Part shown: positions 41,805 through 62,550 of the stretch, one piece after another
Layout of the letters: the number at the start of each line of letters is the position of its first letter
Position numbering within the stretch: position 1 is the first letter of the stretch
Origin: Arbacia lixula
Taxonomy: Eukaryota; Echinodermata; Echinoidea; Arbacioida; Arbaciidae
Reading direction: 5' to 3'
Assembly: GCA_963669155.1 (NCBI GenBank)
Contig: OZ022589.1
Span: 7,175,337 to 7,239,336 of the forward strand
DNA: 64,000 nucleotides
Notes under the pieces: generated by a model
What the model saw: the letters and a program-made list of their open reading frames with translations, nothing else
Told to the model about the DNA's origin: nothing
Database searches by the model: none
Translations under genes and position numbers: made by a program

Positions 41805-44800
41805 AGGATACATACCAGAATTCAACCGTGGTTCGTTGGAAGATGATTTTAATCCAGGTTGTATATTTTTATTGTAAACGAACTCATGTCATGGTTTCAA
41901 ACTGAAACAGTGAGACACACTCAAAAATTTCCCACATGCCACTTTATGAACGTATTGAGCAACTATTCAACTTTAACCTCAGTTATTAGTTAGTTAGTTA
42001 AAGTGTCAAACGATAGTTTTAAGAGCCCCGACAGTTTTTGAATATGGCGCCATCGTGTAAATACCGTGCGTAATATGCCGGTATGATCCCTGATTTCAAA
42101 TTGAAACTGAAACCCACTCAAAAAGTCATATCTTCCGACTAGCCAACTGTATGACAGCAAAGAGCAACTATTCAGATTTTATACCTCGTATAGATAGTTT
42201 GAGTGTCATACGATAGTTTTATAAAAGCCCGAACTTTTTTGGAAAAAGGTCGCGCGGTAAATCCTGTGAATGCCGTGCGTAACATGGCGGTAAGAGCCCT
42301 GATTTCAAACTGAAACAGTAAGACACACTCAAAAAGTTCCCACATATGCCACCAATATAGAGTAATAAACGGCAACTATTCAACTTTTTGCTTCATGTCA
42401 TAAATAGTCTTAAAAGCCCCGCCAATATAAAGGATTGTGGTAATTTTCGGTACATCCTGCATGTTTATGCCATGCGTATCGACTGAAATGCCTGTTTGAG
42501 CCCATCAAATTGAAACATTAAATACGGGCCCATTCAAAAGTCCCAACATGTGACCTACTGAGAGTAAAAAGCAACTAAATAAGCTTTCTTCTAATAAAAG
42601 TCATTAGTTGCTTTAAAGGGTACAACCGGGCAGAAATTCAACACTTTTATATCTCAAATGAATATAAATAACAAGTTTGATATCCTGAATTTATTTCGAC
42701 ATCGTTGCGAGGAATCACATGTTGCATCCCATATAATAATGTTGAGATCGTTTCTTCTTTTTTGTTTGACCCTTCGGACACCATAATCCCTCTTTTCGCC
42801 AATTTCAGCAGCAGCAAGGACTGTGGTTTCAAGGAGCGGAGCGAAATTTCCGGGAGGAGGAGGCTGAAAACACTGACGCCATCACCTGGAACAGCGTTCA
42901 AATTCTGTAAAAGGACAGTCTATCTTGACAATTTTGTGTGAAGCAAGTGTGAATCGATAATTAGAAAGAACACAATCAAAAAGGGCAAGAAAAGGGTTCT
43001 TAGACATACAAAAATGGCTCCAGTCAATAAAGGAAAAGATGAGGGACCTAAAAGGCCATGCCCGATCATGCAGATGACTTACTGCGAACCGCTCACGCGG
43101 GAGCAGTCGATCCCGGGGCTAGCAGATGACCTCCTTAACTCCACGGAAAAGGATAGCACTTCTTGCAACTCTTAAGGAGGCAATTTTAAATAAAGAAGGG
43201 GGACCTCAGAGTTGGGCCCAGACTCGGAAGAGACGCAGCTAGGATCAGGATGCCAGTTGCCAGATATGGAGTGTGGAGAAGGAGAGAAAGAAGATGAAGT
43301 CCGCAAAGATCGAGCAGGAGCAGGAGCAGGAGGTGGAAAGTGATCGACCACCAAATCCTATAGATAAGGCTATTGAGTACCTCCAAGAGTATCTATGCTG
43401 CTTGCTGGGCACTTTCCAGAGTATCACAGAAGGCAAGGAAAGCGGTTATCAGACAGTGCGGCAAGTGAAATGATCAAAACTGCATGAGCCTGAGGTCCGG
43501 GCCTGAGGTAAGGAAAAACAAAACCTGAATGAAAAGCCCTGGGGGAAAAATACACAGGGGCTTGGGGCGATTTTGCCCCCGGAATGCTTAAAAGAGCCCT
43601 GGAAAATATTAAAAAGAGCCCAAAAAGTTCCCATCGACACAATGTAAAATTGTAGAAAAATTGGCCAATGTGCTCAAAAAGTAGCTCCGCCCCCCCCCCC
43701 CCCCAATTTTTGATTAATTCTTTCCCTGATGAATATAGCCAGGTTCTCATGATTGATTGACACTTCTTTATCGATCTCATGTGAAATTAACTTAAACAAT
43801 TGATATAAAACTCAAAAGTACTGTAGGAATGTAGAGACTAGAGATCAAGCTGGATATTTTGAAATGTCATATCAATACAAGAAATCTTTTATAGGCTTAG
43901 ATCTATAATTTCATTATTCTAATTTATCATTTGTATATGATCTACATCTAGTACTATCATTTGTATAATTTTCGTAAAATCATATTGATATCACCAATAT
44001 GAATAACAAGTCTACAAGCCTCCCTTTTTTGTGTAATATTCTGTATCACTCCTACAATACTTATCATTATCATCATCATCATACTTATTTTCATAATTCA
44101 ATTCTTTCAGCATTTTAAATCCTCCATTATGGGTCATTTTTAACAAGGAGTGTGTAGACATTTATTACAGTTTATCACTTTTGTGTTTTCTCAGATAACA
44201 GTAAAACCACAGCTCAAAGCTTTTTAGCAAGAAGTCAACGTGTCTACAATTGCTTAATTTTCCTGGGAGGAAGCCATGGACGAGGCCAACCAAAGTATGC
44301 CAGCCACGGTCAACTGTATCTGGGCAATGATGCTACTAAAAAAAAAATGGAGAAAACAAAAGGTACATAAAGTGCTTTCATGTCTCTTTAATCTGTTTAC
44401 GCCTCATTATTGCAGAAAAGAGCCAATATTTTAAGCCATTAATTGTTTCTGAATTAATCAAATACATTTTTTTCTATCAAAATTTCATGCATATTTATAG
44501 TCATCTATAGATGCAAATAAAGAAATACAAAAATTATGGCTTATCAATGTAATCTCTATTTTGTTATCTGAAGCCAAATGCATTACAAATCAGAATATAT
44601 TCAGATCATTTTCAAGTAAATTTAGAAGATATAAGATGTCATTTTTTTGTGTGTGTATCTTCAGTGACCCTTGCTCGAAAGGCTGGACAAATGCTGTCCA
44701 CTTCCCTGCATGCCAATTGGGGGAAGTACAAGTTTGTATGGACCTCCCTTGGGATAGAGCTTTGGAAACAATGAGTAAGCAACAAAGTGTTCCAGACATT

Positions 44801-45942
44801 GAACTACATGGGGGTGTCCCAAGGTGTCTATGCAGCCAAGTACAATGTGGACAAGATTGGAATACAGCATGACCAAGAATTCCTCAAATGGAAAGAATCT
44901 CAGGTTTGATCCATATACAACAAACATCAGGGCCAGATTGGAAAGGGGGGGGGGGGGGGGGGGGGGGGCTTTCCACGTACCGTAACAGTAACACCAATAT
45001 CTTCCCCTTCCCCCTTTTTGTTGCTCCTTTTCTATTGGCTACTCAGCACACCTGCCAAATTTGCCCCTGAATCTGGCCCTGTTTTAATACAAAATAATGA
45101 AATATTTAATTTGTATTGATAATTAAGTAAGAATTGTGCCATCAAAGAAAATTAATTCTCATAAAATCTAAAAGATAATAAGTACACGGCTTAGTGCGGC
45201 TTACTATATATCACGTGCATTATTTTTTATCTGAATTGTGTGCGATAAACATGCAAATGAGTGGACTAAATATGAATAGTAAAAATCAACTGTGATGTTA
45301 TTCTGTGATATGATGTTTAGAAGCTTATATTGATTCAATGTTATGAAGATCAGCTTCGATATTATGTTCAAGGAATAGGGAAGCTTAGTCATCAGCAGAT
45401 ATATTAAAAAAATAAAATAATTATAGGCTCTAATTCAAAGTTCATGTTAATGAATACTATTCTTAGTCACTTGTAGCTTATACATTTAAATGTTTGTATG
45501 CATTTGTAAATCTCAAGGGAATTTAATTTGTGATGTATATCTTGGAATCCTCAATATTTTATCAGTGCACCATGAAATTACAAGTTATGCTGATTTAAAA
45601 TCATTTTGATTATGACAACATTGTCTTTTCTTTAATTACCCACCCCCACCAGGAAGAGATCAGGGTTCCGCAAGAAGGGAACAGGAATGAAAGGCCACCA
45701 GGCTACGGACTATGCATTGAACACATCCAGGTCGCCTCGCAAGCAAAGCCCCAGAGTGCAGTGCAATCCAACACATTTATGTCACAAACAATGTGTTTTG
45801 CTGTCAAAGACCGAGTCCCACAACAGCCATCACAAAGACAAGTTTCAGCCGTAGAACTGGACCCTTATGCCTTTCTCCCATCGCCAGATGTGTTTGAGCG
45901 ACAAAGAGCAAGGGCCGTCTTCTTGGTCACACGCTTCCTCAC
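41805..45942 (+). repeat. Inverted segmental duplicate of 8.47-17.86 kb
   Basis: Read on the plus strand this segment repeats, in order, the outer edge (about 17.86-17.76 kb), the 190-base repeats, the leader and the first four exons and introns of the minus-strand DUF6589 gene. It stops inside exon 4 (near 45942, matching about 8467). It lacks the 5.1-kb block and the 10.0-10.2 kb foldback element of the original. Confidence 0.8.
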
Positions 45943-45966
45943 AAATGTGACGAAGAAATTGAGCTA
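42770..45966 (+). pseudogene. Decayed copy of the DUF6589/PHD gene 5' half
   Basis: Four exon relics are recognisable: about 42858-43505, 44197-44362, 44664-44905 and 45653-45942. The first lost the start codon and the first Cys pair through a deletion of about 180 bases, and carries a 44-base insertion. The second has an in-frame TAG where the original has GAG. The third has an extra C early on, shifting the frame. The fourth still reads as in the original (EEIRVPQEGN..., QTMCFAVKDRVP) until the duplication ends. No DUF6589 core or PHD finger is present, so this is a dead partial copy. Confidence 0.85.
43079..43122. mobile_element. 44-base insertion with 8-base target duplication
   Basis: CAGATGAC stands on both sides (43071-43078 and 43123-43130) of TTACTGCGA...CCGCTCACGCGGGAGCAGTC...CCCGGGGCTAG. 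Nearly the same sequence occurs at 18339-18390. Eight-base duplications are typical of hAT-type insertion, but the unit is too small to classify. Confidence 0.6.
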
Positions 45967-45969
45967 AGT

Positions 45970-46690
45970 AACCATCAAAAAATAACTAGCATAATAAAGA
46001 AATGGAAAATGGTGCATCCATAAAAGCAGGTAAGGCTTGACAGTTGAATCCACCAGGTGCACATAAATGATTGCATATACTGTTTGGTACTATAATTGAA
46101 ACACTGGATCCAACACTGGAGCCAAATACTGAAAAAGGGAGATTGTTGAATCAATTGTCATAAAATGAGAGCAAATGTTTTTTAACTATATTGAATGAAG
46201 GAACTTCTTCTGTCCTCGTCAAGTGAAGCAGGATATATGTAGTGATAGGCTTTGCTTCTCCGTCCATCTCTGCCCGCTCCCCCCACCTCTTGCCAAGACG
46301 ACATGACATCTGAAGGAACTCCCCTCTCTCTCTCTCTCTCTCTATCTTGGTATGGTTCTGTCATGGCTGATGGATCGTGACTTTTGTGGTGGTGCGCCTC
46401 CTATGTCGATCTTCTGCGGCTCTGTAGAGGGATGCGATCGGCTGTCCAACCAGGGTATTAATGCAGTCGATCCATCGTGTTTTCATTTTGAAAGAAAAAG
46501 AAAATTTGATATTCCTGCTGGATGTAATACATATTCTAATTTTTTTTTGAGGGGTGGGGGTGGGGGGAAATTGCGTTGTCTTTTCTTTTGCTTATCGTGC
46601 ATATATGATAGCCATAGGTGCCATTTCAAGTGGTCTAAGTACCACCTGAGTGATTCTTGAAACTCTCTGCTCTCAGTCTTTGACAAAATG
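45970..46690 (-). pseudogene. RecQ-like motif VI half exon and flank
   Basis: On the minus strand 46364-46182 reads GVPSDVMSSWQEVGGAGRDG and RRSKAYHYIYPASLDEDRRS, an isolated piece of the RecQ helicase motif VI region. A (CT)n tract at 46323-46343 lies in it. No upstream helicase motifs are attached. Confidence 0.55.
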
Positions 46691-47390
46691 AAATGGCGTG
46701 TATGATATTGTTATGTATGATTTAAATCCATTGGGTTTTCAGCCTCCCAGGTCTTTCCCTTGAAGCACTACCTTCTCCAAATAATCTCCTTGTCGCCTTG
46801 CAATGTGACCGAAGTATCTGAGGGCCAGTTAGTTGATTTTATCCAGGAGTAGTTAAGGGCCATCCCCAATGTCCTGTAGGACACTCTCATTAGTCCTTCT
46901 TACAGCCCAAGGAATCCTAAGCATCCTTCGCCAACACCACAGTTCAAAAGGTGTTGATCCTGCTGCAGTCATCCTTGGTCAGTAACAATGTTTAAACACC
47001 CATATGTCACAAATGGGGAAGACGAGTGCTGCAACAATGCCACAGAGCACACTCCTAGGTCTCTCCATTTGGTCACCTTGGTGATCATCAGGCTCTTCAG
47101 GGGAGTGATTGCCAAGTCATTTGCTTCCCTGCCCATCAGGTTAGCTTCAACATTGTTGTTCTTGCCATGGCTAGTTGCCTTCTGACCTCTTCCTTACATC
47201 CACCCTCCTGTGTAATCATTGCTCCTAAGAATTTAAACTGACCTTTTCAACTTCCTGTCCATCTTTACTTAAGGGCTTTGTTGACTCCTCTTCTCCAATA
47301 ACCATCAACTTGGTCTTGGCAACATTTAGGACTAAACCCAGAGCTTTACTCTCATTCTTAACTGTTTTGAAACATTACTGTCAGCTCATC
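46690..47390 (-). mobile_element. LINE reverse transcriptase fragment, copy 1
   Basis: Minus-strand translation, with frame breaks, shows LGLVLNVAKTKLMVIGEEES, then ITKVTKWRDLGV..., LTKDDCSRINTF, RRTNESVLQDIG and a C-terminal tail ending DLNHT. These are the palm/thumb and C-terminal regions of a non-LTR reverse transcriptase. Stops and shifts make it defunct. Confidence 0.7.
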
Positions 47391-47525
47391 CAATGCATGA
47401 CAAAATCAAAATCAATGATGTTGACACCCAGACCAAAGGCCACTGTCAGTGTAATGCGCAGTATCCTACTTTTGCTGTCTGCAAACTCTTCAGTATGGTG
47501 ATGTCCTCGGGGGGAGTCACAAGGT
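47391..47525 (-). pseudogene. Diverged RecQ-like helicase fragment
   Basis: The minus strand reads RILRITLTVAFGLGVNIIDF and DFVMHW, the helicase motif V region, clearly related to but more diverged than the ten array copies. It joins the LINE fragment directly at its downstream side. Confidence 0.6.
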
Positions 47526-48300
47526 ATGCCCAAATGAGTGGGCCATTTGGAAGGGAACTTGATGCGCTATTTACTGGAGCAGGCATTGTCGACATGGGTG
47601 AGACTAATTGAAGTAAAAAAGCAGATTTTTATGACAAAGACTTTCAACACTTCACTAAAGAATATCAACATCATGCCCTCTTTGGCTGTATTCCTGGTAG
47701 ACAGAGCTCCCTTAAAATTAATGGAAGTTGGGATATTCAAAATCATTAGAAATTGGGCCAGGAATGAAAAAAAGTCTCTAAAAAAAAATGAACATGTGGC
47801 AAAAAAATATCTGACTTTATCATGTCTAAAGAATCGTGAGCAAAGAGTCACTTGTGATCACAAACTGAGCAACATAAGCTGTCACCAGCACACTGGATGC
47901 TTCCATGCATTTCCTTGATGGTGAGATACTGAAGGATGGATAGCCTGAAGCACTTCCTCTTCTCCAGTGCTGCGTGGATGACGTCAATGAAGTGCTGGTC
48001 TGTCCTCCTGGAGTTCAGCGAAGCGGGATAGATGTACAGATTGGCCTTGCTTCTCCTTCCATCTGCGCGCCCGCTCTCCCCACCTCTTGCTAAGATGACA
48101 TCACATCTGAAGGAACTCCCTCTCTCCCTTGGTACGGTTCCATCATGGCTGACAGGTCGTAACTTTTGTGATGATGTGTCATCTACGTCGATCTTCTTTG
48201 ATTCTTTGATAGAATGTATATCTCTTGCTAGTTCTCACAAACTATGTAATGTAGCCTACATGAGCTGTCACCAGCACACTGGATGTTCCAACACATTTCC
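47526..48300 (-). pseudogene. AT-rich spacer and RecQ-like half exon
   Basis: The part 47560-47850 shows nothing recognisable. At 47890-48180 the minus strand carries the VPSDVMSS.QEVGRAG-type half exon and a PLRW-type continuation, repeated at 52000-52200, 55690-55880 and 57110-57320. Confidence 0.5.
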
Positions 48301-48735
48301 TTGACTGTCAGACATTCAAGGATTGATTGCCTGGAGTATTTCCTCTTTTCCAATGCCGCATGGATCACATTGATGAAATCTTGATCCGTCCTCCTGGGGT
48401 CAAGTGAAGCAGGATATATGTACAGATAGGCCTTGCTTCTCCTTCCATCTCTGCCCACTTTCCCCACCTCTTGTCAATATGACATGATGTCTAGAGGAGC
48501 TTCCCAATGCAAGACAAACTGAACATCGTGGATGTTCACCCCCAGACCAAAGGCCACTGTCGCCACGACGCACCGTATCATACTGTTGCTCTCCGCAAAC
48601 TCCTCAGTGATGTTGCACTGGCTTGAGGTGGCTGAGCTGCCGTGGAACATCTCGCAGAGTGTGCTCCCTGAAGGCTTGCATCCCAGTTCCATCGTGATCC
48701 AGGCCCATATTTCAGCTACATGGTTGATGTTGCTA
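48300..48735 (-). pseudogene. RecQ-like exon, array copy 1
   Basis: Reads NINHVAEIWAWITMELG through VVATVAFGLGVNIHDVQFVL to IMSY, then TGA where others have TGG, then QEVGKVGRDGRRSKAYLYIY and the native SILECLTVKEMCWN tail. Confidence 0.75.
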
Positions 48736-49136
48736 TAAGAAGAGAAATTAATGATAAGAGCTAGTATATTTCTAGGATCAGAATTATGGATATTAATCTT
48801 GGATGACACTTCTGAAATCTAATTGGTTATAGTAGTTATTATATAGCTTGAATCACATTTTATTTTCTGCAATTTGTAAGTATACATGTTGAAAAAAAAT
48901 AGAAAAATTGACATTATTCCTCCTGGATGCCATACATAATCTGAAAAAAAAGCAGTTTGCAAATTGCATTCTCTTTTGCTTGCCGTGGTGGCCATAGTTG
49001 TCAGTTCTTGGTGGCATTTCAAGTGGTCTAAGTACCAGCTGAGTGATTCTTGAAACTCTCAGTCTTTGACACATTCAGATGAATGATAGCCCTGATGACG
49101 GAATGAAATTACGTGTATGATATTGTTATGTGTGAT

Positions 49137-49758
49137 TTAAATCCACTGGGTTTTCAGTCTCCCAGGTCGGCACATTCCTTCAATTTTTCCTTGAAGCACT
49201 TGCTCCAAAGATTCTTCTCGTTGCCTTGCAATGTGACCGAAGTATCTAAGGGCCCATTGATTGATTTTATCCAAGAGGAGTCTTGGGTCTGTTTCAATGT
49301 CCTGTACGACACTCTCTTTAGTCCTTCTTACAGCCCAAGGAATCCTGCTGGATTGCCTGTACCATTTTCTCTTTTCCAATGCTGTATGGATCACATTGAA
49401 GAAATCTTGATCTGTCCTCCTGGAGTCAAGTGAAGCGGGATATATGTACAGATAGGCCTTGCTTCTCCTTCCATATCTGCCCACTTTCCCCACCTCTTGT
49501 CAATATGACATGATGTCTGGAGGAGCTCCCCAGTGCAAGACAAACTGAACATCGTGGATGTTCACCCCCAGACCAAAGGCCACTGTCGCCACGACGCACC
49601 GTATCATACTGTTGCTCTCCGCAAACTCCTCAGTGATGTTGCACTGGCTTGAGGTGGCTGAGCTGCCATGGAACATCTCGCAGAGTGTGCTCCCTGAAGG
49701 CTTGCATCCCAGTTCCATCGTGATCCAGGCCCATATTTCAGCTACATGGTTGATGTTG
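49137..49758 (-). pseudogene. RecQ-like exon fused to LINE tail, array copy 2
   Basis: Same lobe as copy 1 with the same TGA in place of Trp before QEVGKVGRYG. After ALEKRKWYRQS it continues into the LINE C-terminal tail SRIPWAVRRTKESVVQDIE, QWALRYFGHIARQ and RPGRLKTQW. Confidence 0.75.
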
Positions 49759-50157
49759 CTATAAGAAAAGAAATTAATGATTAGAGCTAGTATATTTCTA
49801 GGATCAGAATTGTGGATATTAATCTTGGATGACACTTCTGAAATCTAATTGGTTATAGTAGTTATTATCTAGCTGGAATCACATTTTGATTTCTGCAAAT
49901 TTTATATATACATGTTGAAAGAAATAGAAAAATTGACATTATTCCTGCTGGATGTCATATATAATCTGAAAAAAAAATAGTTTGCAAATTGCATTTTCTT
50001 TTGCTTGCTGTGATGGCCATAGTTGTCAGTTCTTGGTGGCAATTCAACTCTTCTAAGTACCAGCTGAGTGATTCTTGAAACTCTCTGCTCTCAGTTTTTG
50101 ACACATTCAGATGAATGATAGGCCTGATGACAAAATGAAATTACGTGTATGATATTG

Positions 50158-50790
50158 TTATGTGTGATTTAAATCCATTGGCATTTTTAGTCTCCCAGGT
50201 CTGCGTATTCCTTCAATTTTCCCTTGAAGCACTTTCTCCGAATAATCTTGTTGCCTTGCAATGTGACCGAAGTATCTAAGGGCCCATTGATTGATTTTAT
50301 CCAAGAGGAGTCTTGGGTCTGTTCCAATGTCCTGTAGGACACTCTCTTTAGTCCTTCTTACAGCCCAAGGAATCCTGCTGGATTGCCTGTACCATTTTCT
50401 CTTTTCCAATGCTGCATGGATCACATTGAAGAAATCTTGATCTGTCCTCCTGGAGTCAAGTGAAGCGGGATATATGTACAGATAGGCCTTGCTTCTCCTT
50501 CCATATCTGCTGGCGTTTCCCACCTCTTGCCAATATTACATGATGTCTGGAGGAGCTCCCCAATGCAAGACAAACTGAACATCGTGGATGTTCACCCCCA
50601 GACCAAAGGCCACTGTCGCCACGACGCATCGTATCATACTGTTGCGCTCCGCAAACTCCTCAGTGATGTTGCACTGGCTTGAGGTGGCTGAGCTGCCATG
50701 GAACATCTCGCAGAGTGTGCTCCCTGAAGGCTTGCATCCCAGTTCCATCGTGATCCTGGCCCATATTTGAGCTACATGGTGGATGTTGCT
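50158..50790 (-). pseudogene. RecQ-like exon fused to LINE tail, array copy 3
   Basis: Motif V is intact. A TAA replaces the Ser codon in DIMSYW, and the Trp is kept. The tail is the LINE type, ending MDLNHT. Confidence 0.75.
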
Positions 50791-51279
50791 ATAAGAAAAG
50801 AAATTAATGATTAGAGCTAGTATATTTCTAGGATCAGAATTGTGGATATTAATCTTGAATGACACTTCTGAAATCTAATTGGTTATAGTAGTTATTATCT
50901 AGCTTGAATCACATTTTAATTTCTGCAATTTGTATGTGTACATGTTGAAAGAAATAGAAAAAATTGACATTATTCCTGCTGGATGTCATACATAATCTGA
51001 AAAAAAAATAGTTTGCAAATTGCATTTTCTTTTGCTTGCCGTAATGGCCATAGTTGTCAGTTCTTGGTGGCATTTCAACTGGTGTAAGTACCAGCTGAGT
51101 GATTCTTGAAACTCTCTGTCTTTGACACATTCAGATGAATGGGTTTTCGGTCTCCCAGGTCTGCGCATTCCTTCCTTCAAGTACCAGCTGAGTGGTTCTT
51201 GAAACTCTCAGTCTTTGACACATTCAGATGAATGTTGTGCCTGATGACAAAATGAAATGGCGCTTATGATATTGTTATG

Positions 51280-51903
51280 TGTGATTTAAATCCACTGGGT
51301 TTTCAGTCTCCCAGGTCTGCACATTCCTTCAATTTTCCCTTGAAGCACTTTCTCCAAATAATCTCCTTGTTGCCTTGCAATGTGACTGAAGTATCTGAGG
51401 GCCAGTTAGTTGATTTTATCCAGGAGTCTAGGGCCTGTTCCAATGTCCTGTAGGACACTCTCATTAGTCCTTCTTACAGCCCATGGAATCCTGGATTTCC
51501 TGGAGCATTGTCTCTTTTTCAATGCCGCATGGATCACATTGATGACATCTTGATCCGTCCTCCTGGAGTCAAGTGAAGCGGGATATATGTACAGATAGGC
51601 CTTGCTTCTCCTTCCATCTCTGCCCGCGTTCCCCACCTCTTGCCAATATGACATGATGTCTGGATGAGCTCCCCAATGCAAGACAAACTGAACATCGTGG
51701 ATGTTCACCCCCAGACCAAAGGCCATTGTTGCCACGACGCATCGTATCATACTGTTGCTCTCCGCAAACTCCTCAGTGATATTGCACTGGCTTGAGGTGG
51801 CTGAGCTGCCGTGGAACATCTCGCAGAGTGTGCTCCCTGAAGGCTTGCATCCCAGTTCCATCATGATCCAGGCCCATATTTCAGCTACATGGTTGATGTT
51901 GCT
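51280..51903 (-). pseudogene. RecQ-like exon fused to LINE tail, array copy 4 (open)
   Basis: The frame is open from upstream of NINHVAEIW through motif V (VVATMAFGLGVNIHDVQFVL) and motif VI (SYWQEVGNAGRDG) into the LINE tail SRIPWAVRRTNESVLQDIG up to LLDKIN and a stop. It is one of four copies open through motif VI, but still lacks the first helicase lobe. Confidence 0.7.
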
Positions 51904-52362
51904 ATAAGAAAAGAAATTAGTGATAAGAGCCAGTATATTATTAGGGCAGGAATTGTGGATGTCAATCTTCGATGACACTTCTTAAAGGATGGATAGCCTG
52001 AAGCACTTCCTCTTCTCCAATGCTGCGTAGATGACATCGATGAAGTGTTGGTCTGTCCTCCTGGAGTCCAGCGAAGTGGGATGGATGCACAGATTGGCCT
52101 TGCTTCTCCTTCCATCTGCGCGCCCGCTCTCCCCACCTCTTGCCAAGATGACATCACATTGGAAGGAACTCCCTCTCTCCCTTGGTACGGTTCCATCTGG
52201 CTGACAGCTCGTGACTTTTGTGATGATGCGTCATCTACGTAAATCTTCTTTGATTCTTTGATAGAAAGTATATTTCTTGCTAGTTCTCACAAACTATGCG
52301 ACGTACATGAGCTGTCTCCAGCACACTGGATGTTCCAACACATTTCCTTGACTGTCAGACAT

Positions 52363-52784
52363 TCAAGGATTGATTGCCTGTAGCATTTTTCTCTTTTCCA
52401 ATGCTGCATGGATCACATTGAAGAAATCTTGATCTGTCCTCCTGGAGTCAAGTGAAGCGGGATATATGTACAGATAGGCCTTGCTTCTCCTTCCATCTCT
52501 GCCCACTTTCCCCACCTCTTGCCAATATGACATGATGTCTGGAGGAGCTCCCCAATGCAAGACAAACTGAACATCGTGGATGTTCACCCCCAGACCAAAG
52601 GCCACTGTCGCCATGACGCACCATATCATACTGTTGCTCTCTGCAAACTCCTCAGTGATGTTGCACTGGCTTGAGGTGGCTGAGCTGCCATGGAACATCT
52701 CGCAGAGTGTGCTCCCTGAAGGCTTGCATCCCAATTCCATCGTGATCCTGGCCCATATGTCAGCTACATGGTTGATGTTGCTAT
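52363..52784 (-). pseudogene. RecQ-like exon, array copy 5 (open)
   Basis: Open through motif V and motif VI (SYWQEVGKVGRDG), ending ALEKRKMLQAINP where a small frame change removes the native tail. A half exon lies just upstream at 52000-52200. Confidence 0.7.
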
Positions 52785-53199
52785 CAGAAAAGAAATTAAT
52801 GATTAGAGCTAGTATATTTCTAGGATCAGAATTGTGGATATTAATCTTGGATGACAATTCTGAAATCTAATTGGTTATAGTAGTTATTATCTAGCTTGAA
52901 TCACATTTTAATTTCTGCAATCTTTATATATACATGTTGAAAGAAATAGAAAAATCATTATTCCTGCTCGATGTCATACATAATCTGAAAAAAAAAATAG
53001 TTTGCAAATTGCATTTTCTTTTGCTTGCTGTGATGGCCATAGTTGTCAGTTCTTGGTGGCAATTCAACTCTTCTAAGTACCAGCTGAGTGATTCTTGAAA
53101 CTCTCTGCTCTCAGTTTTTGACACATTCAGATGAATGATAGGCCTGATGACAAAATGAAATTACGTGTATGATATTGTTATGTGTGATTTAAATCCATT

Positions 53200-53812
53200 A
53201 GGTTTTTCGGTCTCCCAGGTCTGCACATTCCTTCAATTTTCCCTTGAAGCACTACCTTCTCCAAATAATCTCCTTGTTGCCTTGCAATGTAACCGAAATA
53301 TCTGAGGGCCAGTTAGTTGATTTTATCCAGGAGTCTAGGGCCTGTTCCAATGTCCTGTAGGACACTCTCATTAGTCCTTCTTACAGCCCAAGGAATCCTG
53401 GATTGCCTGGAGCATTGTCTCTTTTCCAATGCCGCATGGATCACATTGATGAAATCTTGATCCGTCCTCCTGGAGTCAAGTGAAGCGGGATATATGTACA
53501 GATAGGCCTTGCTTCTCCTTCCATCTCTGCAAGCTTTCCCCACCTCTTGCCAATATTACATGATGTCTGGAGGAGCTCCCCAATGCAAGACAAACTGAAC
53601 ATCGTGGATGTTCACCCCCAGACCAAAGGCCACTGTCGCCACGACGCACCGTATCATACTGTTGCTCTCCGCAAACTCCTCAGTGATGTTGCACTGGCTT
53701 GAGGTGGCTGAGCTGCCGTGGAACATCTCGCAGAGTGTGCTCCTTGAAGGCTTGCATCCCAGTTCCATCGTGATCCAGGCTCATATGTCAGCTACATGGT
53801 TGATGTTGCTAT
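53200..53812 (-). pseudogene. RecQ-like exon fused to LINE tail, array copy 6
   Basis: Carries the same TAA for Ser as copy 3 (after PPDIM). Motif VI reads QEVGKACRDG. The tail is of LINE type. Confidence 0.75.
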
Positions 53813-54179
53813 AAGAAAAGAAATTAATGATTAGAGCTAGTATATTTCTAGGATCAGAATTGTGGATATTAATCTTGGATGACACTTCTGAAATCTAATT
53901 GGTTATAGAAGTTATTATCTAGCTGGAATCACATTTTAATTTCTGCAATTTTTATATATACATGTTGAAAGAAATAGAAAAATTAACATTATTCCTGCTC
54001 GATGTCATACATAATCTGAAAAAAAAAATAGTTTGCAAATTGCATTTTCTTTTGCTTGCCGTGATGGCCATAGGTGTCAGTTCTCGGTGGCATTTCAACT
54101 CTTCTAAGTACCAGCTGAGTGATTCTTGAAACTCTCTGCTCTCAGTTTTTGACACATTCAGATGAATGATAAGCCTGAT

Positions 54180-55085
54180 GACAAAATGAAATTACGTGTA
54201 TGATATTGTTATGTGTGATTTAAATCCATTAGGTTTTTCGGTCTCCCAGGTCTGCACATTCCTTCAATTTTCCCTTGAAGCACTTTCTCCAAATAATCTC
54301 CTTGTCACCTTGCAATGTGACCGAAGTATCTGAGGGCCAGTTGGTTGATTTTATCCAGGAGTCTAGGGCCTGCTCCAATGTCCTGTAGGACACTCTCACT
54401 AGTCCTTCAGGCAGTCCAAGGAATCCTCATCATCCTCTGCCAACACCACAGTTCAAAAGTGTTGATCCTGCTGCAGTCATCCTTGGTCAACAACAACGTT
54501 TAACACCCACATGTCGCAATAGGGAAGACGAGTGCTTGCACCAAGCACGTTTTAGTATACGTTATTATAACAACCCCTGTCTCTTCAAATCTTGGTTAGC
54601 TTCAACATTGTTGTCTACAACTTGTTATATATACGACAAAGTTTTATGCAGGAAAAAGAGGCAAATACCTTCTGCTTTATTACAATGTCTTACAAATGAA
54701 AGTAACTTAAAGATCTGATGAGAGTTCAGATCTAATTATCCATTGGGTCCTTCAATATCACTTCGACTTCTGTCTTTCTTCGGCAACAATGCCACAGAGC
54801 ACACTCCTAGGTCTCTCCATTTGGTCACCTTGGTGATCATTAGGCTCTTCAGGGGAGTGATTGCCAAAGTCATTTGGTTCCCAGCCCATCAGGTTAGCTT
54901 CAACATTGTTGTTCTTGCCATGGCTAGTTGCCTTCTCACCCCTTCCTTACATCCACCCTCCTGTGTAATCACTGCTCCTAAGAATTTAAACTGACTGACC
55001 TTTTCAACTTGCTATCCGTCTTTACTCAAGGGCTCTGTTGACTCCTCTTCTCCAATTACCATCAACTTGGTCTATGCTCTAACAT
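54180..55085 (-). mobile_element. LINE reverse transcriptase fragment, copy 2
   Basis: The minus strand shows TKLMVIGEEESTEPLSKDG, VEKVSQFKFLGAVIT, VTKWRDLGVCSVALL and, lower down, TKDDCSRINTF and a C-terminal tail near 54400. It interrupts the RecQ array between copies 6 and 7, lengthening that spacing to 1796 bases. A block at 54600-54860 recurs at 63600-63880. Confidence 0.75.
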
Positions 55086-55139
55086 TTCTAAAGAATCATG
55101 AAGAGTTGCTAGTGCTCACAAACTGTGCAACATGAGCTG

Positions 55140-55607
55140 TCACCAGCACACTGGATGTTCCCACGCATTTCCTGGACCGTCAGACATTCAAGGATTGATA
55201 GCCTGAAGCACTTCCTCTTTTCCAATGCTGCATGGATTACATTGATGAAGTGTTGGTCCATCCTCCTCGAGTCAAGTGAAGCAGGATATATGTACAGTTA
55301 GGCCTTGCTTCTCCTTCCATCTCTGCCCACTTTTCTCACCTCTTGTCAATATGACATGATGTCTGGAGGAGCTCCCCAATGTAAGACAAACTGAACATCA
55401 TGGATGTTCACCCCCAGACCAAAGGCCACTGTCGCCACGAAGCACCGTATCATACTGTTGCTCTCCGCAAACTCCTCAGTGATGTTGCACTGGCTTGAGG
55501 CGGCTGAGCTGCCTTGGAACATCTCACCGAGTGTGCTCCCTGAAGGCTTGCGTCCTAGTTCCATCGTGATCCTGGCCCATATTTCAGCTACATGGTTGAT
55601 GTTGCCA
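55140..55607 (-). pseudogene. RecQ-like exon, array copy 7
   Basis: Motif V is intact (FVATVAFGLGVNIHDVQFVL). TGA replaces the Trp of motif VI as in copies 1 and 2. Upstream, 55690-55880 carries a half exon. Confidence 0.7.
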
Positions 55608-55987
55608 TAAGAAAAGAAATTAATGATAAGAGCTAGTATATTATTAGGGCAGGAATTATGGATATTAATCTTGGATGACACTTCTGAAAGGATGGATAGC
55701 ATGAAGCACTTCCTCTTCTCCAATACTGCGTGGATGACATCAATGAAGTGTTGGTCTGTCCTCCTGGAGTCCAGCGAAGTGGGATGGATGTACAGATTGG
55801 CCTTGCTTCTCCTTCCATCTCTGCCTGCTCTCCCCACCTCTTGCCAAGATCACATCACATCTGAAGGAACTCTCTCTCTCTCTTGGTAAGGTTCCATCTG
55901 GCTGACAGTTCGTGACTTTTGTGATGATGTGTCATCTACGTCGATCTTCTTTGATTCTTTTATAGAAGGTATATCTCTTGTTAGTCC

Positions 55988-56483
55988 TCACAAACTATGC
56001 AACATACATGAGCTGTCACCACCACTGTGGATGTTCCCACACATTTCCTTGACTGTCAGACATTCAATGATTGATAGCCTGAAGCACTTCCTCTTTTCCA
56101 ATGCCGCATGGATTACATTGATGATGTGTTGGTCCGTCCTCCTTGAGTCAAATGAAGTGGAGTAGATGTACAGATAGGGCTTGCTTCTCCTTCCTTCTCT
56201 GCCCGCTTTTCCCACCTCTTGCCAATATGACATGATGTCTGGACGAGCTCCCCAATGCAAGACAAACTGAACATCGTGGATGTTCACCCCCAGACCAAAG
56301 GCCACTGTCGCCACGACGCTCCATATCATACTGTTGCTCTCTGCAAACTCCTCAGTGATGTTGCACTGGCTTGAGGTGGCTGAGCTGCCGTGGAACATCT
56401 CGCAGAGTGTGCTCCCTGGAGGCTTGCATCCCAGTTCCATCGTGATCCAGGCCCATATTTGAGCTACATGGTTGATGTTGCTA
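55988..56483 (-). pseudogene. RecQ-like exon with native tail, array copy 8 (open)
   Basis: Open through motif V, motif VI (SYWQEVGKAGREG) and the native tail SIIECLTVKEMCGNIHSGGD. With copy 9 this is the best-preserved form of the exon. Confidence 0.7.
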
Positions 56484-56881
56484 TAAGAAAAGAAATTAAT
56501 GATTAGAGCTAGTATATTTCTAGGATCAGAATTGTGGATATTAATCTTGGATGACACTTTTGAAATCTAATTGGTAATAGTAGTTATTATCTAGCTTGAA
56601 TCACATTTTAATTTCTGCAATTTGTATGTATACATGTTGAAAGAAATAGAAAAATTGACATTATTCCTGCTGGATGTCATAAATAATCTGAAAAAAAAAT
56701 AGTTTGCAAATTGCATTTTCTTGTGCTTGCCATGATGGCCATAAGTGTGTCAGTTCTTAGTGGTATTTCAACTGGTATAAGTACCAGCTGAGTGATTCTT
56801 GAAACTCTCTGCTCTCAGTCTTTGACACATTCAGATGAATGATAGGCCTGATAACAAAATGAAATGGCGCGTACGATATTA

Positions 56882-57346
56882 TTATGTGTGATTTAAATCC
56901 ATTGGGTGTTCAGTCTGCAAGGTCATGCGCATTCCTTCAATTTTTCCTTGAAGCACTTTCTCCAAATAATCTCCTTGATGCCTTGCAATGTGATCCAAGT
57001 ATCTAAGGGCCCATTGATTGATTTTACCCAAGAGGAGTCTTGGGTCAGTTCCAATGTCCTGTAGGACACTCTCATTAGTCCTTCTTACAGCCCAAGGAAT
57101 CCTGGATTGCCTGGACCATTTTCTCTTTTCCAATGCTGCATGGATTACATTGATGAAATCTTGATCCGTCCTCTTGGATTCAAGTGAAGCGGGATATATG
57201 TACAGATAAGCCTTGCTTCTCCTTCCATCTCTGCCCACTTTCCCCACCTCTTGCGAAGATGACATCACATCTGAAGGAACTCCCTCTCTCCCTTGGTACG
57301 GTTCCATCATGGCTGACAGGTCGTAACTTTTGTGATGATGCGTCAT
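56882..57346 (-). pseudogene. Half exon fused to LINE tail
   Basis: The minus strand is open from SYDLSAMMEPYQGREGVPSD through SSSQEVGKVGRDGRRSKAYL into the LINE tail RIPWAVRRTNESVLQDIG and MDLNHT. It lacks the motif V half, being the second unit type in the array. Confidence 0.65.
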
Positions 57347-57390
57347 CTATGCGATCTTCTTTGATTCTTTGATAGAATGTATATCTCTTG

Positions 57391-57898
57391 CTAGTTCTCA
57401 CAAAGTATGTAATGTAGCCTACATGAGCTGTCACCAGCACACTGGATGTTCCAACACATTTCCTTGACTGTCAGACATTCAAGGATTGATTGCCTGTAGT
57501 ATTTCCTCTTTTCCAATGCTGCATGGATCACATTGATGAAATCTTGATCTGTCCTCCTGGAGTCAAGTGAAGCGGGATATATGTACAGATAAGCCTTGCT
57601 TCTCCTTCCATCTCTGCCCACTTTCCCCACCTCTTGCCAATATGACATGATGTCTGGAGGAGCTCCCCAATGCAAGACAAACTGAACATCGTGGATGTTC
57701 ACCCCCAGACCAAAGGCCACTGTCGCCACGACGCACCATATCATACTGTTGCTCTCTGCAAACTCCTCAGTGATGTTGCACTGGCTTGAGGTGGCTGAGC
57801 TGCCGTGGAACATCTCGCAGAGTGTGCTCCCTGAAGGCTTGCATCCCAGTTCCATCGTGATCCAGGCCCATATTTCAGCTACATGGTTGATGTTGCTA
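57391..57898 (-). pseudogene. RecQ-like exon with native tail, array copy 9 (open)
   Basis: Open through motif V, SYWQEVGKVGRDG and the tail SILECLTVKEMCWNIQCAGD, ending shortly after SSCRLHYILCEN. The frame also stays open upstream across the acceptor-like site. Confidence 0.7.
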
Positions 57899-58299
57899 TA
57901 AGAAAAGAAATTAATGATAAGAGCTAGTATATTTCTAGGATCAGAATTGTGGATATTAATCTTGGATGACACTTCTGAAATCTAATTGGTTATAGTAGTT
58001 ATTATATAGCTTGAATCACATTTTATTTTCTGCAATTTGTATGTATACATGTTGAAAAAAAATAGAAAAATTGACATTATTCCTGCTGGATGTCACACAT
58101 AATCTGAAAAAAAAGCAGTTTGCAAATTGCATTTTCTTTTGCTTGCCGTAATGGCCATAGGTGTCAGTTCTTGGTGGCATTTCAAGTGGTCTAAGTACCA
58201 GCTGAGTGATTCTTGAAACTCTCAGTCTTTGACACATTCAGATGAATGATTGGCCTGATGACGTAATGAAATTACGTGTGTGATATTGTTATGTGTGAT

Positions 58300-58922
58300 T
58301 TAAATCCATTGGGTTTTCAGTCTCCCAGGTCTGCACATTCCTTCAATTTTTCCTTGAAGCACTTGCTCCAAACATTCTCCTCGTTGCCTTACAATGTGAC
58401 CAAAGTATCTAAGGGCCCATTGATTGATTTTATCCAAGAGGAGTCTTGGGTCTGTTTCAATGTCCTGTAGGACACTCTCTTTAGTCCTTCTTACAGCCCA
58501 AGGAATCCTGCTGGATTGCCTGTACCATTTCCTCTTTTCCAATGCTGCATGGATCACATTGAAGAAATCTTGATCTGTCCTCCTTGAGTCAAGTGATGCG
58601 GGATATATGTACAGATAAGCCTTGCTTCTCCTTCCATCTCTGCCCACTTTCCCCACCTGTTGTCAATATTACATGATGTCTGGAGGAGCTCCCCAGTGCA
58701 AGACAAACTGAACATCGTGGATGTTCACCCCCAGACCAAAGGCCACTGTCGCCATGACGCACCGTATCATACTGTTGCTCTACGCAAACTCCTCAGTGAT
58801 GTTGCACTGGCTTGAGGTGGCTGAGCTGCCGTGGAACATCTCGCAGAGTGTGCTCCCTGAAGGCTTGCATCCCAGTTCCATCATGATCCAGGCCCATATT
58901 TCAGCTACATGGTTGATGTTGC
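58300..58922 (-). pseudogene. RecQ-like exon fused to LINE tail, array copy 10
   Basis: Carries both the TAA-for-Ser and the TGA-for-Trp changes seen singly in other copies, plus a further stop near the FAESN position. The LINE tail reads QWALRYFGHIVRQ and ends RPGRLKTQW. Confidence 0.75.
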
Positions 58923-59100
58923 TATAAGAAAAGATATTAATGATAAGACTAGTATATTACTAGCCCAGGAATTGTGGATATCAATCTTGGATGACACTTC
59001 TGAAATCAAGGATTCATTTCTTTCTCAGGAGAGATGTCATTTTTTCCTTGACCCTAAAAAGACTGGGAGGATCTAAATATGATTTCTTGTACTAGAATGT

Positions 59101-60223
59101 CTAATTGTAATCACTTGTTTTGATTGCTTTTATCATCAGTGTCGTGTTATGTTTGTGGTACATAGCCTCATTCAGTATAGAGACTCTTGCCCCTACGTCC
59201 ACAAGGAGATCAACCGGCATCGCGTTGAGCTTCACTGTGCATTCCTTGAACCGTCCGCTTGTTGGACCATTCACCGCGTAGACAGTTTGTGAAGATGCAT
59301 AGCTCGTTTGCTCATGCTCGCCGATATCGTCGGTTGTGTCCTTAATGTGTCGTACCGCATTCTGTGTCTTACGGGTGGCACGGCATACTGGTGAAAAATG
59401 GTTTGGCTTCCCACACGAATGACAGGTTTTCCCGTAAGCGGGGCATGCTGTCCTTTTTTTGAGTGGGTGTGTACCCCCACAGTTCCCACATGCTTTGTTG
59501 TGGGGGAAGGCACGGGAATGTTGCGGCTTGCGACCTTGTGGTGGGCCCTGCAGGCGCTGGGTGTGCTTGCCCTGAGTGGAGCGATTGATGGCTTGAACTC
59601 GGTCTGCTGACTGTACACCAGTATTAGAGTGACTGTTTGAATTTGACAGAGTTTTTGAGTCGATCATAGCTGATTCTAAGTTCACTGCAAGTATGGTTGC
59701 TTTTTCTAGGGTTAGAGTCCGGGGTTAGAGTATCATCCTCCATTAACAAACGCTCACGTAAGCGAGGGATGCTTGTTTTCTCGATGAGCTGATCTCGTAT
59801 CATCTCTTCTTTAAGTGTACCGAACTTGCAAGAAGAAGCTTACTCACCCAAGGCGGCAATATAGTGCTCGACTGGCTCCCCGTGTCCTTGATGGGCACAC
59901 TGGCGAAATCGGTAACGCTCGATCATCATGCTCTTCTTTGGTCCGAAGTACCCCTCCAGGCCTTTCACCGCTTCGTCAAACTTTGTGTGCGGGTGGCCCC
60001 CGGCGTCCGTGAGCTGCTCAAGCACTCGCTGTCCCTCAGTACCCAGACAATGGGCGAGGATTGCCTGTTTACGTTCGGGGCTTTCGGAGTTCATGGCCGT
60101 GGCGAGAAGATAGGTTTTGATACTCGAAATCCATCGATCCCACGGCACTTGAGGCTCCCCAGGAGTGTTGAGGAAAGGCGTTGGGGCCGGTAGGTTCAAA
60201 CTAGTGGCCGTCCTCGTCTCCAA
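59101..60223 (-). mobile_element. Broken gag-protease of a Ty3/Gypsy-type retrotransposon
   Basis: From 60223 the minus strand reads a gag-like start (PWDRWISSIKTYL, FGPKKSMMIERYRF) with a stop near 59840 and frame damage near 59715. From 59685 it continues into a zinc-knuckle region (C-x2-C...CPAYGKTC, then CHSCGKPNHFSPVC with C-x2-C-x4-H-x4-C) and the start of an aspartic protease (LLVDVGARVSIL, where DTGA or DSGA is usual). It ends at 59101 before any reverse transcriptase. The layout resembles K02A2.6-like Gypsy elements. The copy is inactive. Confidence 0.8.
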
Positions 60224-60420
60224 ATGTTATGTTTGATAATGAAATAAACTAGTCATTTCAGATGATCGTTGAAGGTTGAGTGTGTGTGTTTATTTCACGT
60301 GGAGTACTGACGTTGAGTCAACGTTGTGCATGCATGGCACATTACATAAAGGGGTTGACGCCCTCATTGTTTGCTAACAGTTTAATCAGATACAACTTGT
60401 CGAACTTGTTTCTTTTTCAT
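60224..60420 (-). mobile_element. Possible 5' LTR/leader of the Gypsy-type element
   Basis: Directly upstream of the gag start the minus strand reads ...CATAACATTTGGAGACGAGG, which fits an LTR ending in CA followed by a primer-binding-like TGGAGACGAGG stretch. No second LTR is in the window, so the limits are uncertain. Confidence 0.35.
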
Positions 60421-60439
60421 TAGGAGGTATATTGTAGCG

Positions 60440-60905
60440 TTATCTGGCTCTTTAGCTATGTTGTCTCTATTCTTTCCATAGGCTATACGTCAAAGAGTGA
60501 AAAGGTATAATTATTCTTATGATTTTCTTAACTTAATGTACCTAACCACCTTATAATATCTATTCTTTGGCTATGTTGTCTCTGTTCTTTCCGTAGGCTA
60601 TATATCAAAGAGTGGAGTGGGATAATTATTCTTATGATTTTCTTAACTGAATGTACTGAATCTTATGATATCTATTATTTGGCTATGTTGTCTCTGTTCT
60701 TTCCATAGGCTATACATCAAAGAGTGGAGTGGGATAATTATTCTTATGATTTTCTTAACTTAATGTACCAAATCTTATGATACATGTATCTATTATTTGG
60801 CTATGTTGTCAGTGTTCTTTCCATAGGCTTTACTTCAAATAGTTGAGTACATGTAGCATGATTATTCTTATGATTTCCTTAACTGAATGTACCTAACCTT
60901 ATATC
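60440..60905. repeat. Minisatellite of about 120 bases, four copies
   Basis: Repeats of GGCTATGTTGTCTCT, TTCTTTCCATAGGCTATAC, TCAAAGAGTGGAGTGG and ATTATTCTTATGATTTTCTT run head to tail with small changes. Confidence 0.85.
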
Positions 60906-61059
60906 TACTCTTTTACTCTTCTATGTAAATTTTTTGGTAAAAAGAGAAAATCTCACAAAATGACCAAATTGTGCGGCTATTTTTTTTTTTGGAACCTGTG
61001 TGGAATTTTGGCTGTTTTTTTATGCTGGCACGTTTCAGGTGAAGCATGGCATCAGTTGC

Positions 61060-61825
61060 CGTGGCTGTCAGAAGCATGATGGGGCAACTGAGAACACTTC
61101 TGTGCCGCTCTACTCTCACGTAGTCTGGCCTGAATGTCTTGTCCCAAAGATGGAGGAATTGAGTATCATCAATGAATATAAGTCATATCAAATGCATGTT
61201 AGCATTTTATTCTAATAGCTTGAATGAGGCAATTAAGAATGCTTCTTCGCCATTCCACTCTGAGGTAATCTGGTCTGAATGTCTTGTCCCAAAGATGGCG
61301 GAATTGAAATGATAGAGTATCATCAATGAATATAAGTTATATCAAATACATGTTAGGATCTTATTCTATTAGTTCTTGAATGGGCAACTAATGATTCTTA
61401 GCCTTTCCACTCTGAGGTAATCTAGTCTGAATGTCTTGTCCTAAAAGTGGAGGAATTGAAATGATTGAGTATCATCAATGAATATTATGTCAAATCAAAT
61501 GCATGTTAGCATCTTAAGTTCTTGTATGGGGCAACTAAGAATGCTTCTTAGCCATTCCACTCTCACATAGTCCGGCCTGAATGTCTTGTCTCAAAGATGG
61601 AGAAATTGAAATGATTGAGTATCATCAATGAATATTATGTCAAATCAAATGCATGTTAGCATCTTAATCTAAAAGTTCTTGTATGGGGCAACTTAGAATG
61701 CTTCTTAGCCATTCACTCCGAGGTAATCTGGTCTGAATGTCTTGTCCCAAAAAATAAAGGAATTGAAGAGGATCATCAATAAATATACATACTGGTAAGT
61801 CATATGAAATGCATGTAAGCATCTC
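61060..61825. repeat. Minisatellite of about 160 bases, five copies
   Basis: Units contain TAAGAATGCTTCTT, CCATTCCACTCT, TGAATGTCTTGTCCCAAAGA, GTATCATCAATGAATAT and CAAATGCATGTTAGCAT. The last copy runs into a short start of the TGTCTCGCCTGAA family at 61829. Confidence 0.85.
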
Positions 61826-61849
61826 AGTTTTGTCTCTCCTGAACGAAGT

Positions 61850-62550
61850 TGAGAGTTCAAATCCAATTGTCCATTGACACCTTCAATATCTCTTCGACTC
61901 ATTTCTTTCTTCAGCAACAATGCCACAGAGCACACTCCTAGGTCTCTCCATTTGGTCACCTGGGTGATCCTCAGGCTCTTGAGGGGAGTTTGGTCTGTGC
62001 TGTGAGTGTGGTATCGGCTCTAGGACGTGCTCTTTGCATTGATACGTTACTCTGGCACTTGAAAAAGCCAGGTCTGGATTATGACTTCTCCTCCATCAAC
62101 AGCTGTGGAAGGAGGAAGGGAGCTTGGCATCATGGATTAGCTTGGTCTACCTCTGCCCATTCCTCTAGGAGATCGCCATCTCCATTACTTGCTTGGATGG
62201 TAGCCCCATGAGGTGCTGTGGCTGTCGAAGTTCCCAAAGATATCATTCACCCCGCTTGTAACTGAGTGCTTTTGGTTCTTTAAAGGCAAACAGAGACCCT
62301 GGTGGTTTGTATACCGGGGTCACTGCTTGTCTCCCAAGGTTCATGGTGAGGATTTCTACGTTTTCCCTTTCAGACATCGAGGTCTTGCCAATGATATCAT
62401 GATTTTTAAGAAAGAGAGCACTGCCATATTTATCATGTGGCCTTTCAGTTCCTAACATCATTCCAGGGATCTTAGGCCGGTTCTGTTGTTGACCTCTGTG
62501 AGTTTCTTGTAGGCATAATATTAGGCAGTCATCATCCGAGCAGAGCTTCC
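61850..62550 (-). mobile_element. LINE fragment with endonuclease joined to late RT
   Basis: The minus strand begins near 62540 with SDDDCLILCLQETHRGQQQN, then PHDKYGSALFLKN, VEILTMNLGRQAVTPVYKPP and FDSHSTSWGY, all typical of the AP-endonuclease domain of a LINE. Near 61985 it switches to VTKWRDLGVCSVALL, which lies late in the reverse transcriptase of copies 1 and 2. Most of the RT is deleted. Stops and shifts are present. Confidence 0.75.

What the first reader, a model, noticed from the sequence alone, without database searches (positions are those of the whole stretch)
47890..58965. Tandem amplification of a RecQ lobe fused to a LINE tail
Seen: ten or more units each hold helicase motif V/VI of a RecQ-like protein; many continue without a break into a LINE C-terminal tail (RIPWAVRRTNESVL). 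No first helicase lobe is present. Inference: a 5'-truncated LINE landed in the helicase exon and the chimera was amplified. Such an array could be a dead satellite, a source of small RNAs, or alternative last exons for a helicase gene lying upstream (beyond 60 kb on the minus strand).
Basis: partly seen in the sequence, partly recalled or inferred. Interest (0 to 1): 0.7.

Follow-up and report, generated by a model that had tools for sequence, protein, structure and literature searches.

The report
Decayed tandem array of transposon helicase
An 11-kb stretch of an animal chromosome holds ten decaying copies of half a DNA-unwinding enzyme, half of them fused to the tail of a jumping gene; it is most likely the amplified wreck of a transposon's own helicase gene, not a working host gene.

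Summary
The array is real. On the minus strand, 59007 to about 46190 holds ten copies of a RecQ second lobe (90-98% identical) plus partial copies. Five lobes and one partial lobe run in frame into a LINE tail. No first lobe was found in 134 kb (5 kb unreadable). Genome searches find this lobe's DNA only at this locus.

The locus carries a DUF6589-like gene convergent with the RecQ remnant. Four near-identical 15-17 kb elements on four other contigs show the same gene pair in the same order, with inverted-repeat ends and 8-9 bp target duplications, close to the 9-10 bp reported for AcademH transposons. The lobe is probably an old transposon helicase.

A LINE fragment did land in a lobe exon (47494-46190). 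The amplified helicase-LINE fusion is a second event: one breakpoint inside the LINE, shared by six units.

Changes private to one unit look neutral, stops are not depleted, and two stops are shared between units, so the array looks dead. Against this, 387 lobe columns have no indels in ten copies. The locus is one arm of an inverted duplication around a ferroportin gene.

The parts
46190..59007 (-). whole array with its LINE-interrupted end copy
58514..59007 (-). lobe copy H1, 3 stops; followed by LINE tail
57488..57982 (-). lobe copy H2, no stop; followed by own zinc-binding region
56073..56567 (-). lobe copy H3, no stop; followed by own zinc-binding region
55197..55689 (-). lobe copy H4, 2 stops; followed by part of own zinc-binding region
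53401..53895 (-). lobe copy H5, 2 stops; followed by LINE tail
52372..52867 (-). lobe copy H6, no stop in 129 codons, one extra base just after them; followed by own zinc-binding region
51494..51986 (-). lobe copy H7, no stop; followed by LINE tail; lobe plus tail open over 191 codons
50381..50875 (-). lobe copy H8, 1 stop; followed by LINE tail
49351..49845 (-). lobe copy H9, 1 stop; followed by LINE tail
48325..48819 (-). lobe copy H10, 1 stop; followed by own zinc-binding region
57105..57284 (-). partial lobe (3' part only) fused to LINE tail; other partial copies at 55695-55872, 51992-52173, 47939-48120
58300..58509 (-). LINE-derived tail, one of seven in the array plus one in the interrupted copy; dispersed relatives elsewhere in the genome
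47390..47494 (-). 5' part of a lobe exon, before the LINE insertion
46325..47389 (-). LINE fragment inserted in the lobe exon, with a nested insert and a (GA)n tail; ends approximate
46190..46324 (-). 3' part of the same interrupted lobe exon
45599..45964 (+). right-arm exon remnant of the convergent DUF6589-like gene (partner of the left-arm exon 8333-8809)
47336..47611 (+). open frame overlapping another right-arm stretch that matches the left arm
5634..6128 (-). left-arm exon of the convergent gene, weak DUF6589 match (PF20231, 5.1e-5, 22.6 bits, cut-off 27)
8333..8809 (-). left-arm exon of the same gene (no Pfam match; matches an element frame at 8.9e-5)
11030..11674 (-). left-arm frame with Cys pairs, like the outermost minus-strand frame of the dispersed element (likeness read by eye; no Pfam match)
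42053..64000 (.). right arm of the inverted duplication (continues to about 66264 outside the window)
1..12517 (.). left arm of the inverted duplication (starts about -6531, outside the window)

Best explanation
The array is the decayed, tandemly amplified second lobe of a RecQ-type helicase that belonged to an old AcademH-like DNA transposon (helicase gene convergent with a DUF6589 gene). Proposed events: (1) an AcademH-like gene pair sat on this chromosome and the locus came to lie in two inverted arms around a ferroportin gene; (2) a 5'-truncated LINE with a (GA)n tail inserted in the lobe exon of one helicase copy; (3) an illegitimate recombination joined the end of an uninterrupted lobe to a point inside the LINE, making a roughly 1,026-bp unit (lobe, LINE tail, spacer); (4) unequal crossing-over multiplied and shuffled the units in the right arm only; (5) the units now decay close to neutrally. 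Shown by calls: inverted arms, gene order, LINE insertion, one shared fusion breakpoint, neutral private changes. Inferred: transposon ancestry of this locus, the order of events, unequal crossing-over, absence of function.
For: Four dispersed elements pair RecQ and DUF6589 convergently, with the same 30-base end at 0 mismatches on both sides of all four. Target duplications: 9 bp in three of the four and 8 bp in one; of four short copies that I picked, three have 9 bp and one none. AcademH is stated to make 9 or 10 bp duplications and to encode helicase (passage of PMC10045372). Three element frames match the left arm on the same strand and in the same order (E 3e-8, 8.5e-5, 8.9e-5) beside the RecQ relic. 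Tree of 12 rows: array and eight other rows, including the element, against two RecQ genes of this genome taken as host genes and human WRN, 96/98. The left arm has a 1.1-kb relic where the right arm has the array. LINE inside the exon. One fusion breakpoint in six units. Private changes: 30 nonsynonymous, 13 synonymous, 3 stop; expected synonymous share 0.274, p=0.73. Stops shared by 3 and by 4 units.
Against: The gene pair at this locus is not dispersed: the lobe DNA is found only at this locus and the DUF6589-side DNA only in the two arms (2 matches). No terminal inverted repeats were recognised. The DUF6589 match here is below Pfam's cut-off, and the eight other frames scanned with it gave no match to it. 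Array and element lobes are only about 31% identical. The tree rests on one short domain, and no published AcademH sequence was available. The fifth top-scoring RecQ locus (C2) has no DUF6589 among the listed matches. Signs of constraint remain: no gap in 387 lobe columns of 10 copies, against 15 gap events in the other parts; changes shared by several units have omega 0.32, p=0.0055.
Confidence: 0.72

Rival explanations
1. The lobes come from a host RecQ gene (for example WRN-like) that was partly duplicated; the DUF6589 neighbour is coincidental.
For: Best solved-structure match is WRN; the locus is not dispersed.
Against: Convergent DUF6589-like gene in the same layout as four transposons; array separates from three RecQs taken as host at 96/98; the best-scoring lobe elsewhere in the genome is 32% identical, and no listed match outside this locus exceeds 46%, over a short stretch.
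Confidence: 0.15
2. The lobes are still used, as alternative last exons or as short stand-alone helicase-lobe peptides.
For: No indels in 387 lobe columns of ten copies; 4 of 10 lobes stop-free; a pyrimidine-rich stretch ending in AG stands before the lobe in 9 of 10 copies (read by eye); changes shared by several units look constrained.
Against: 6 of 10 lobes carry stops and two stop mutations are shared between units; private changes neutral; no first lobe within reach.
Confidence: 0.07
3. The array is a small-RNA source that silences transposons.
For: Inverted arms and LINE fragments could give double-stranded or clustered transcripts; inference only.
Against: A lobe used as DNA query has no match to the four dispersed RecQ elements, so it could hardly guide silencing of them by sequence; the LINE tail is only about 81% like its closest dispersed relatives.
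Confidence: 0.05
4. Assembly artefact.
For: Tandem repeats invite misassembly; inference only, no call.
Against: Lobe copies differ by 2.4-9.5%, six carry stops, the module order varies, and the window has no N.
Confidence: 0.03

Closest known systems
AcademH DNA transposons (Kojima 2020: not held; known here from its title in reference lists and from passages of PMC10045372 and PMC10799480)
   Same: Helicase-bearing DNA transposon with 9-10 bp target duplications; the four dispersed elements here carry a RecQ-type helicase and 8-9 bp duplications.
   Different: The array locus itself is single, without recognised ends, lacks the first lobe, and has its second lobe amplified. Whether DUF6589 is the Academ transposase was not tested.
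KolobokH DNA transposons
   Same: Transposon with a RecQ helicase (passage of PMC9587614).
   Different: Stated there to be found only in fungi, with RecQ downstream of the transposase domain. Kolobok's TTAA target (recalled) does not fit 9-bp duplications.
Fungal telomere-linked RecQ helicase genes
   Same: Repeated RecQ-like genes (search listing only).
   Different: Recalled: those are helicase genes near chromosome ends; this is an internal array of half-helicases in an animal.
Tandem repeats made from transposon fragments (general kind, recalled)
   Same: Unit multiplied in tandem, private changes neutral.
   Different: Single locus, about ten units, two unrelated element types fused.

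Membership tests
AcademH (the four dispersed elements) | SF2/RecQ-type helicase gene | tested here: met
   In the C7 copy: DEAD 7.9e-15, Helicase_C 2e-19, RecQ_Zn_bind 0.0035 (below its cut-off)
AcademH (the four dispersed elements) | 9 or 10 bp target-site duplication | tested here: met
   9 bp in three of four, 8 bp in one; of four short copies three 9 bp, one none
AcademH (the four dispersed elements) | Academ DDE transposase | not testable with these tools
   No Academ reference sequence was available; the partner gene of the C7 copy matches DUF6589 (2e-23)
AcademH (the array locus) | helicase gene beside the same partner gene | tested here: met
   Convergent DUF6589-like exons; weak but ordered matches
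AcademH (the array locus) | terminal inverted repeats and target duplication | tested here: inconclusive
   blastn at E 1e-4 found no inverted pair between outer and inner ends of the left arm; the pairs at the right arm belong to repeats with further copies nearby; short or decayed ends could be missed
RecQ helicase gene (functional) | first lobe (motifs I-III) | tested here: not met
RecQ helicase gene (functional) | open second lobe (motifs IV-VI) | tested here: inconclusive
   4 of 10 lobes open over 129 codons, 6 with stops
LINE fragment | homology to the C-terminus of a reverse-transcriptase frame, dispersed copies, repeat tail | tested here: met
   150 scored matches, some in 1,104-codon frames; RVT_1 and endonuclease in one; match to 54556-54278; (GA)n tail. 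LINE family not determined

The most novel reading that the evidence does not exclude
DUF6589, a family of unknown function, is the transposase of helicase-bearing AcademH-type DNA transposons, and this locus is a long-kept copy of that gene pair whose left-arm gene still codes while the right-arm helicase lobe was multiplied into a bank of half-helicase exons kept free of indels by selection until recently.
Probability: 0.12. Interest if true: 0.7.

Novelty: new member of a known kind. Interest (0 to 1): 0.4.

Why it matters
The array shows in one place how a coding half-domain becomes a tandem repeat: transposon gene, LINE hit, one illegitimate junction, amplification, decay, with the unamplified arm kept nearby as a reference. 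It also warns that annotation may call such arrays RecQ genes. The side result may matter more: four elements with both genes, matching ends and target duplications tie the unnamed family DUF6589 to a helicase-bearing DNA transposon, which makes a transposase role testable. No paper in the library searched holds the word DUF6589; the library lacks most subscription papers and the AcademH paper itself.

Tried and rejected
First lobe upstream: tblastn and a profile over 134 kb gave none; two weak profile hits lie in the stretch read as LINE.

L3 as part of the LINE: rejected; it is a nested insert flanked by a short repeated LINE stretch, read by eye, and its listed matches are all on this chromosome.

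Host WRN duplicate: weakened by the neighbour gene and the tree.

Small RNA against the dispersed RecQ elements: no DNA similarity.

Papers: the AcademH paper is not held under DOI or PMC id. Searches for RecQ with superfamily II helicase and transposase and for DUF6589 found nothing; a search for a chimeric RecQ-LINE tandem array listed two papers whose titles and abstract starts are on other subjects.

The dropped end holds one extra base in H6.

Full report
What is there. The minus strand from 59007 down to about 46190 is built from four modules: a 495-bp lobe (H), its own zinc-binding continuation (Z), a LINE-derived tail (L5) and a spacer (L3), plus partial lobes (B) that hold only the 3' part. 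There are ten H copies. Reading down the minus strand, five H copies run into L5 and five into Z, one of these cut short. The commonest unit, H plus L5 plus L3, is about 1,026 bp, and blocks of 1.6 to 2.5 kb repeat at 90-95% identity, as unequal exchange between units would leave them (inference).

What the lobe is. Translated H copies match Helicase_C and, among solved structures, WRN best (6.3e-18), then RECQ4, bacterial RecQ, RECQ5 and BLM. One copy that keeps Z ends in SCCTVC, like the SCCDVC of the dispersed elements. A protein search of the 607-Mb genome finds the array and then, by score, nothing better than 32% identity (44 matches, 62 candidates scored). A DNA search finds the lobe only at this locus: the array and a relic 3.3 kb left of the window; the hits on C17 and C18 cover only the LINE tail. 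The tool scores only its best candidates.

The neighbour gene. The window's left part carries minus-strand frames, one of which has a weak DUF6589 match (PF20231, 5.1e-5, 22.6 bits against a cut-off of 27); the other eight frames scanned in that call did not match it. The segment from -6531 to 12517 is repeated inverted at 66264 to 42053, with pieces at about 71-93% identity. Between the arms lie plus-strand ferroportin frames (PF06963, three frames, 1.5e-13 to 5.7e-20). Where the right arm has the array, the left arm has about 1.1 kb: spacer, LINE 3' end, 3' part of the lobe, part of Z. The left arm is thus an unamplified, though partly deleted, reference. A 1,551-bp probe from the DUF6589 side matches only the two arms in the whole genome (2 matches).

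The dispersed relatives. A search with the RecQ family model scored 40 of 222 candidates, so its counts are lower bounds. Its five top places were RecQ genes on C7, C3, C13, C18 and C2. A DUF6589 search gave 36 matches. At C3, C7, C13 and C18 a DUF6589 gene lies about 4.8 to 6.4 kb from the RecQ gene on the opposite strand, convergent; none is listed near C2. C7 and C3 are 97-98% identical over most of the compared length, and the RecQ sides of C18 and C13 are about 98% identical to C7; the C2 piece has no such match. Their common left edge gave a 30-base pattern. With up to 3 mismatches it occurs 201 times forward and 217 times reverse in the genome, against 0 and 0 for the reversed control; without mismatch it brackets all four loci, giving elements of about 15.2 (C3), 15.9 (C7), 16.8 (C13) and 16.1 kb (C18). 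The two ends of the C7 element are identical over the 400 bp tested. Target duplications are 9 bp at C7, C3 and C18 and 8 bp at C13; of four short copies that I picked from the list, three have 9 bp and one none. A passage in the discussion of a later paper says that AcademH makes 9 or 10 bp duplications and links this to its helicase (PMC10045372). The four elements are thus very likely AcademH-type; the Academ transposase itself could not be compared. The array locus has the same order and strands: RecQ relic, convergent DUF6589-like exons (matches at 5996-5655, 8737-8393 and -1300 to -1467), and, by eye, a frame with Cys pairs farthest out.

Tree. Of 18 lobe rows six were left out: three near-identical element copies (L010, L011, L012), two short host-type fragments (L019, L020) and L065, which resembles a kept C17 row. 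The remaining twelve put human WRN and the C6 and C3 RecQ genes, which I take as host genes because they are spread over several exons, on one side, and the array with eight other rows on the other, 96/98. Not all of those eight are shown to be transposons. The tree is unrooted, short, and one host row has a long branch.

The LINE. By protein the tail matches 150 scored places of 661 candidates in this genome, including the C-terminus of near-identical frames of about 1,104 codons on several contigs. One of these, fetched without its last residues, carries an endonuclease (1.2e-10) and a reverse transcriptase (1.4e-34), and its residues 901-992 match 54556-54278 in the array (30% identity, E 1e-4). 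The short pieces alone give no Pfam match. The interrupted copy reads: lobe 5' part (47494-47390), LINE sequence, a nested insert, the LINE 3' end with a run of GA, then the lobe 3' part (46324-46190). So a 5'-truncated LINE did insert into a lobe exon, between motifs V and VI (motif names recalled). The left arm keeps the same GA tail beside the same lobe 3' part. In the amplified units the LINE begins abruptly at one internal point directly after the lobe's end; six junctions (H1, H5, H7, H8, H9 and the partial lobe at 57284) share it, three of them (H1, H8, H9) with three extra bases. At 54427 and 46918 the same LINE continues further upstream. The fusion is therefore best read as one recombination breakpoint, amplified afterwards.

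Is it alive? Over 129 codons in ten copies, changes private to one unit are 30 nonsynonymous, 13 synonymous and 3 stop, as expected without selection (p=0.73); changes shared by several units are 11, 13 and 2, with a synonymous excess (p=0.0055, omega 0.32). The two classes differ only weakly (Fisher p=0.07); shared changes are not independent and may come from gene conversion. Two stops are shared, by three and by four units, so units with stops were multiplied or converted. Against a simple dead array: no gap in the 387 lobe columns with 72 substitutions (10 of 10 copies), but 15 gap events with 156 substitutions in LINE tail, spacer, Z and intron parts (7 tails, 7 spacers, 4 Z and 10 intron pieces; the shorter or more decayed pieces were not given to the call). 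By my own arithmetic from these counts this has a chance of about 0.005; counting the extra base in H6 just past column 387 raises it to about 0.04. The most economical reading is an array that inherited constraint from a functional past and now drifts.

Between the arms, the exon 8333-8809 and its right-arm partner give omega 0.44 over 121 codons (8.5 synonymous, 13.5 nonsynonymous changes), and the first frame 0.63 over 176 codons with a stop; both alignments include poorly matched ends. This hints that the left-arm gene may have stayed coding for some time, no more.

Verdict. As a feature it is a fossil array, a new member of a known kind. The more useful outcome is the set of four helicase plus DUF6589 transposons that explain it.

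Noticed in passing
G000 C3:28666789-28681945, C7:14846378-14862235, C13:6772928-6789716, C18:5741711-5757793: Four near-identical 15-17 kb DNA transposons with RecQ and DUF6589 genes convergent, inverted-repeat ends and 8-9 bp target duplications; short copies with the same ends also occur.
   Followed up: partly
G000, for example C14:5065574-5066617 and C7:10558732-10559775: A second DUF6589 group: many copies in open frames of about 1,590-1,890 codons on many contigs; no RecQ match is listed near these two examples.
   Followed up: no
G000 C19:1049222-1075143, C17:4404502-4421079, C7:3597777-3602655: Clusters of RecQ-like second lobes on one strand, about 32-38% like the array; a DUF6589 frame lies near the C7 cluster.
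   Followed up: no
window -6531..12517 and 42053..66264: Inverted duplication with arms of about 19 and 24 kb around a ferroportin gene.
   Followed up: partly
window 59101-60226, minus strand: Gag-like frames of a retroelement (weak PNMA and aspartyl-protease matches) just upstream of the first lobe.
   Followed up: no
window 60451-60898 and 61158-61767: Two short tandem arrays, periods 112 and 150 bp; the left arm has matches to the first.
   Followed up: no
G000 C20:12682750-12696730 and C53:6623-17467: LINE-tail-like frames of 187 codons repeated at even steps of about 3.4-3.5 kb, five and four times: tandem arrays of another LINE-related unit.
   Followed up: no
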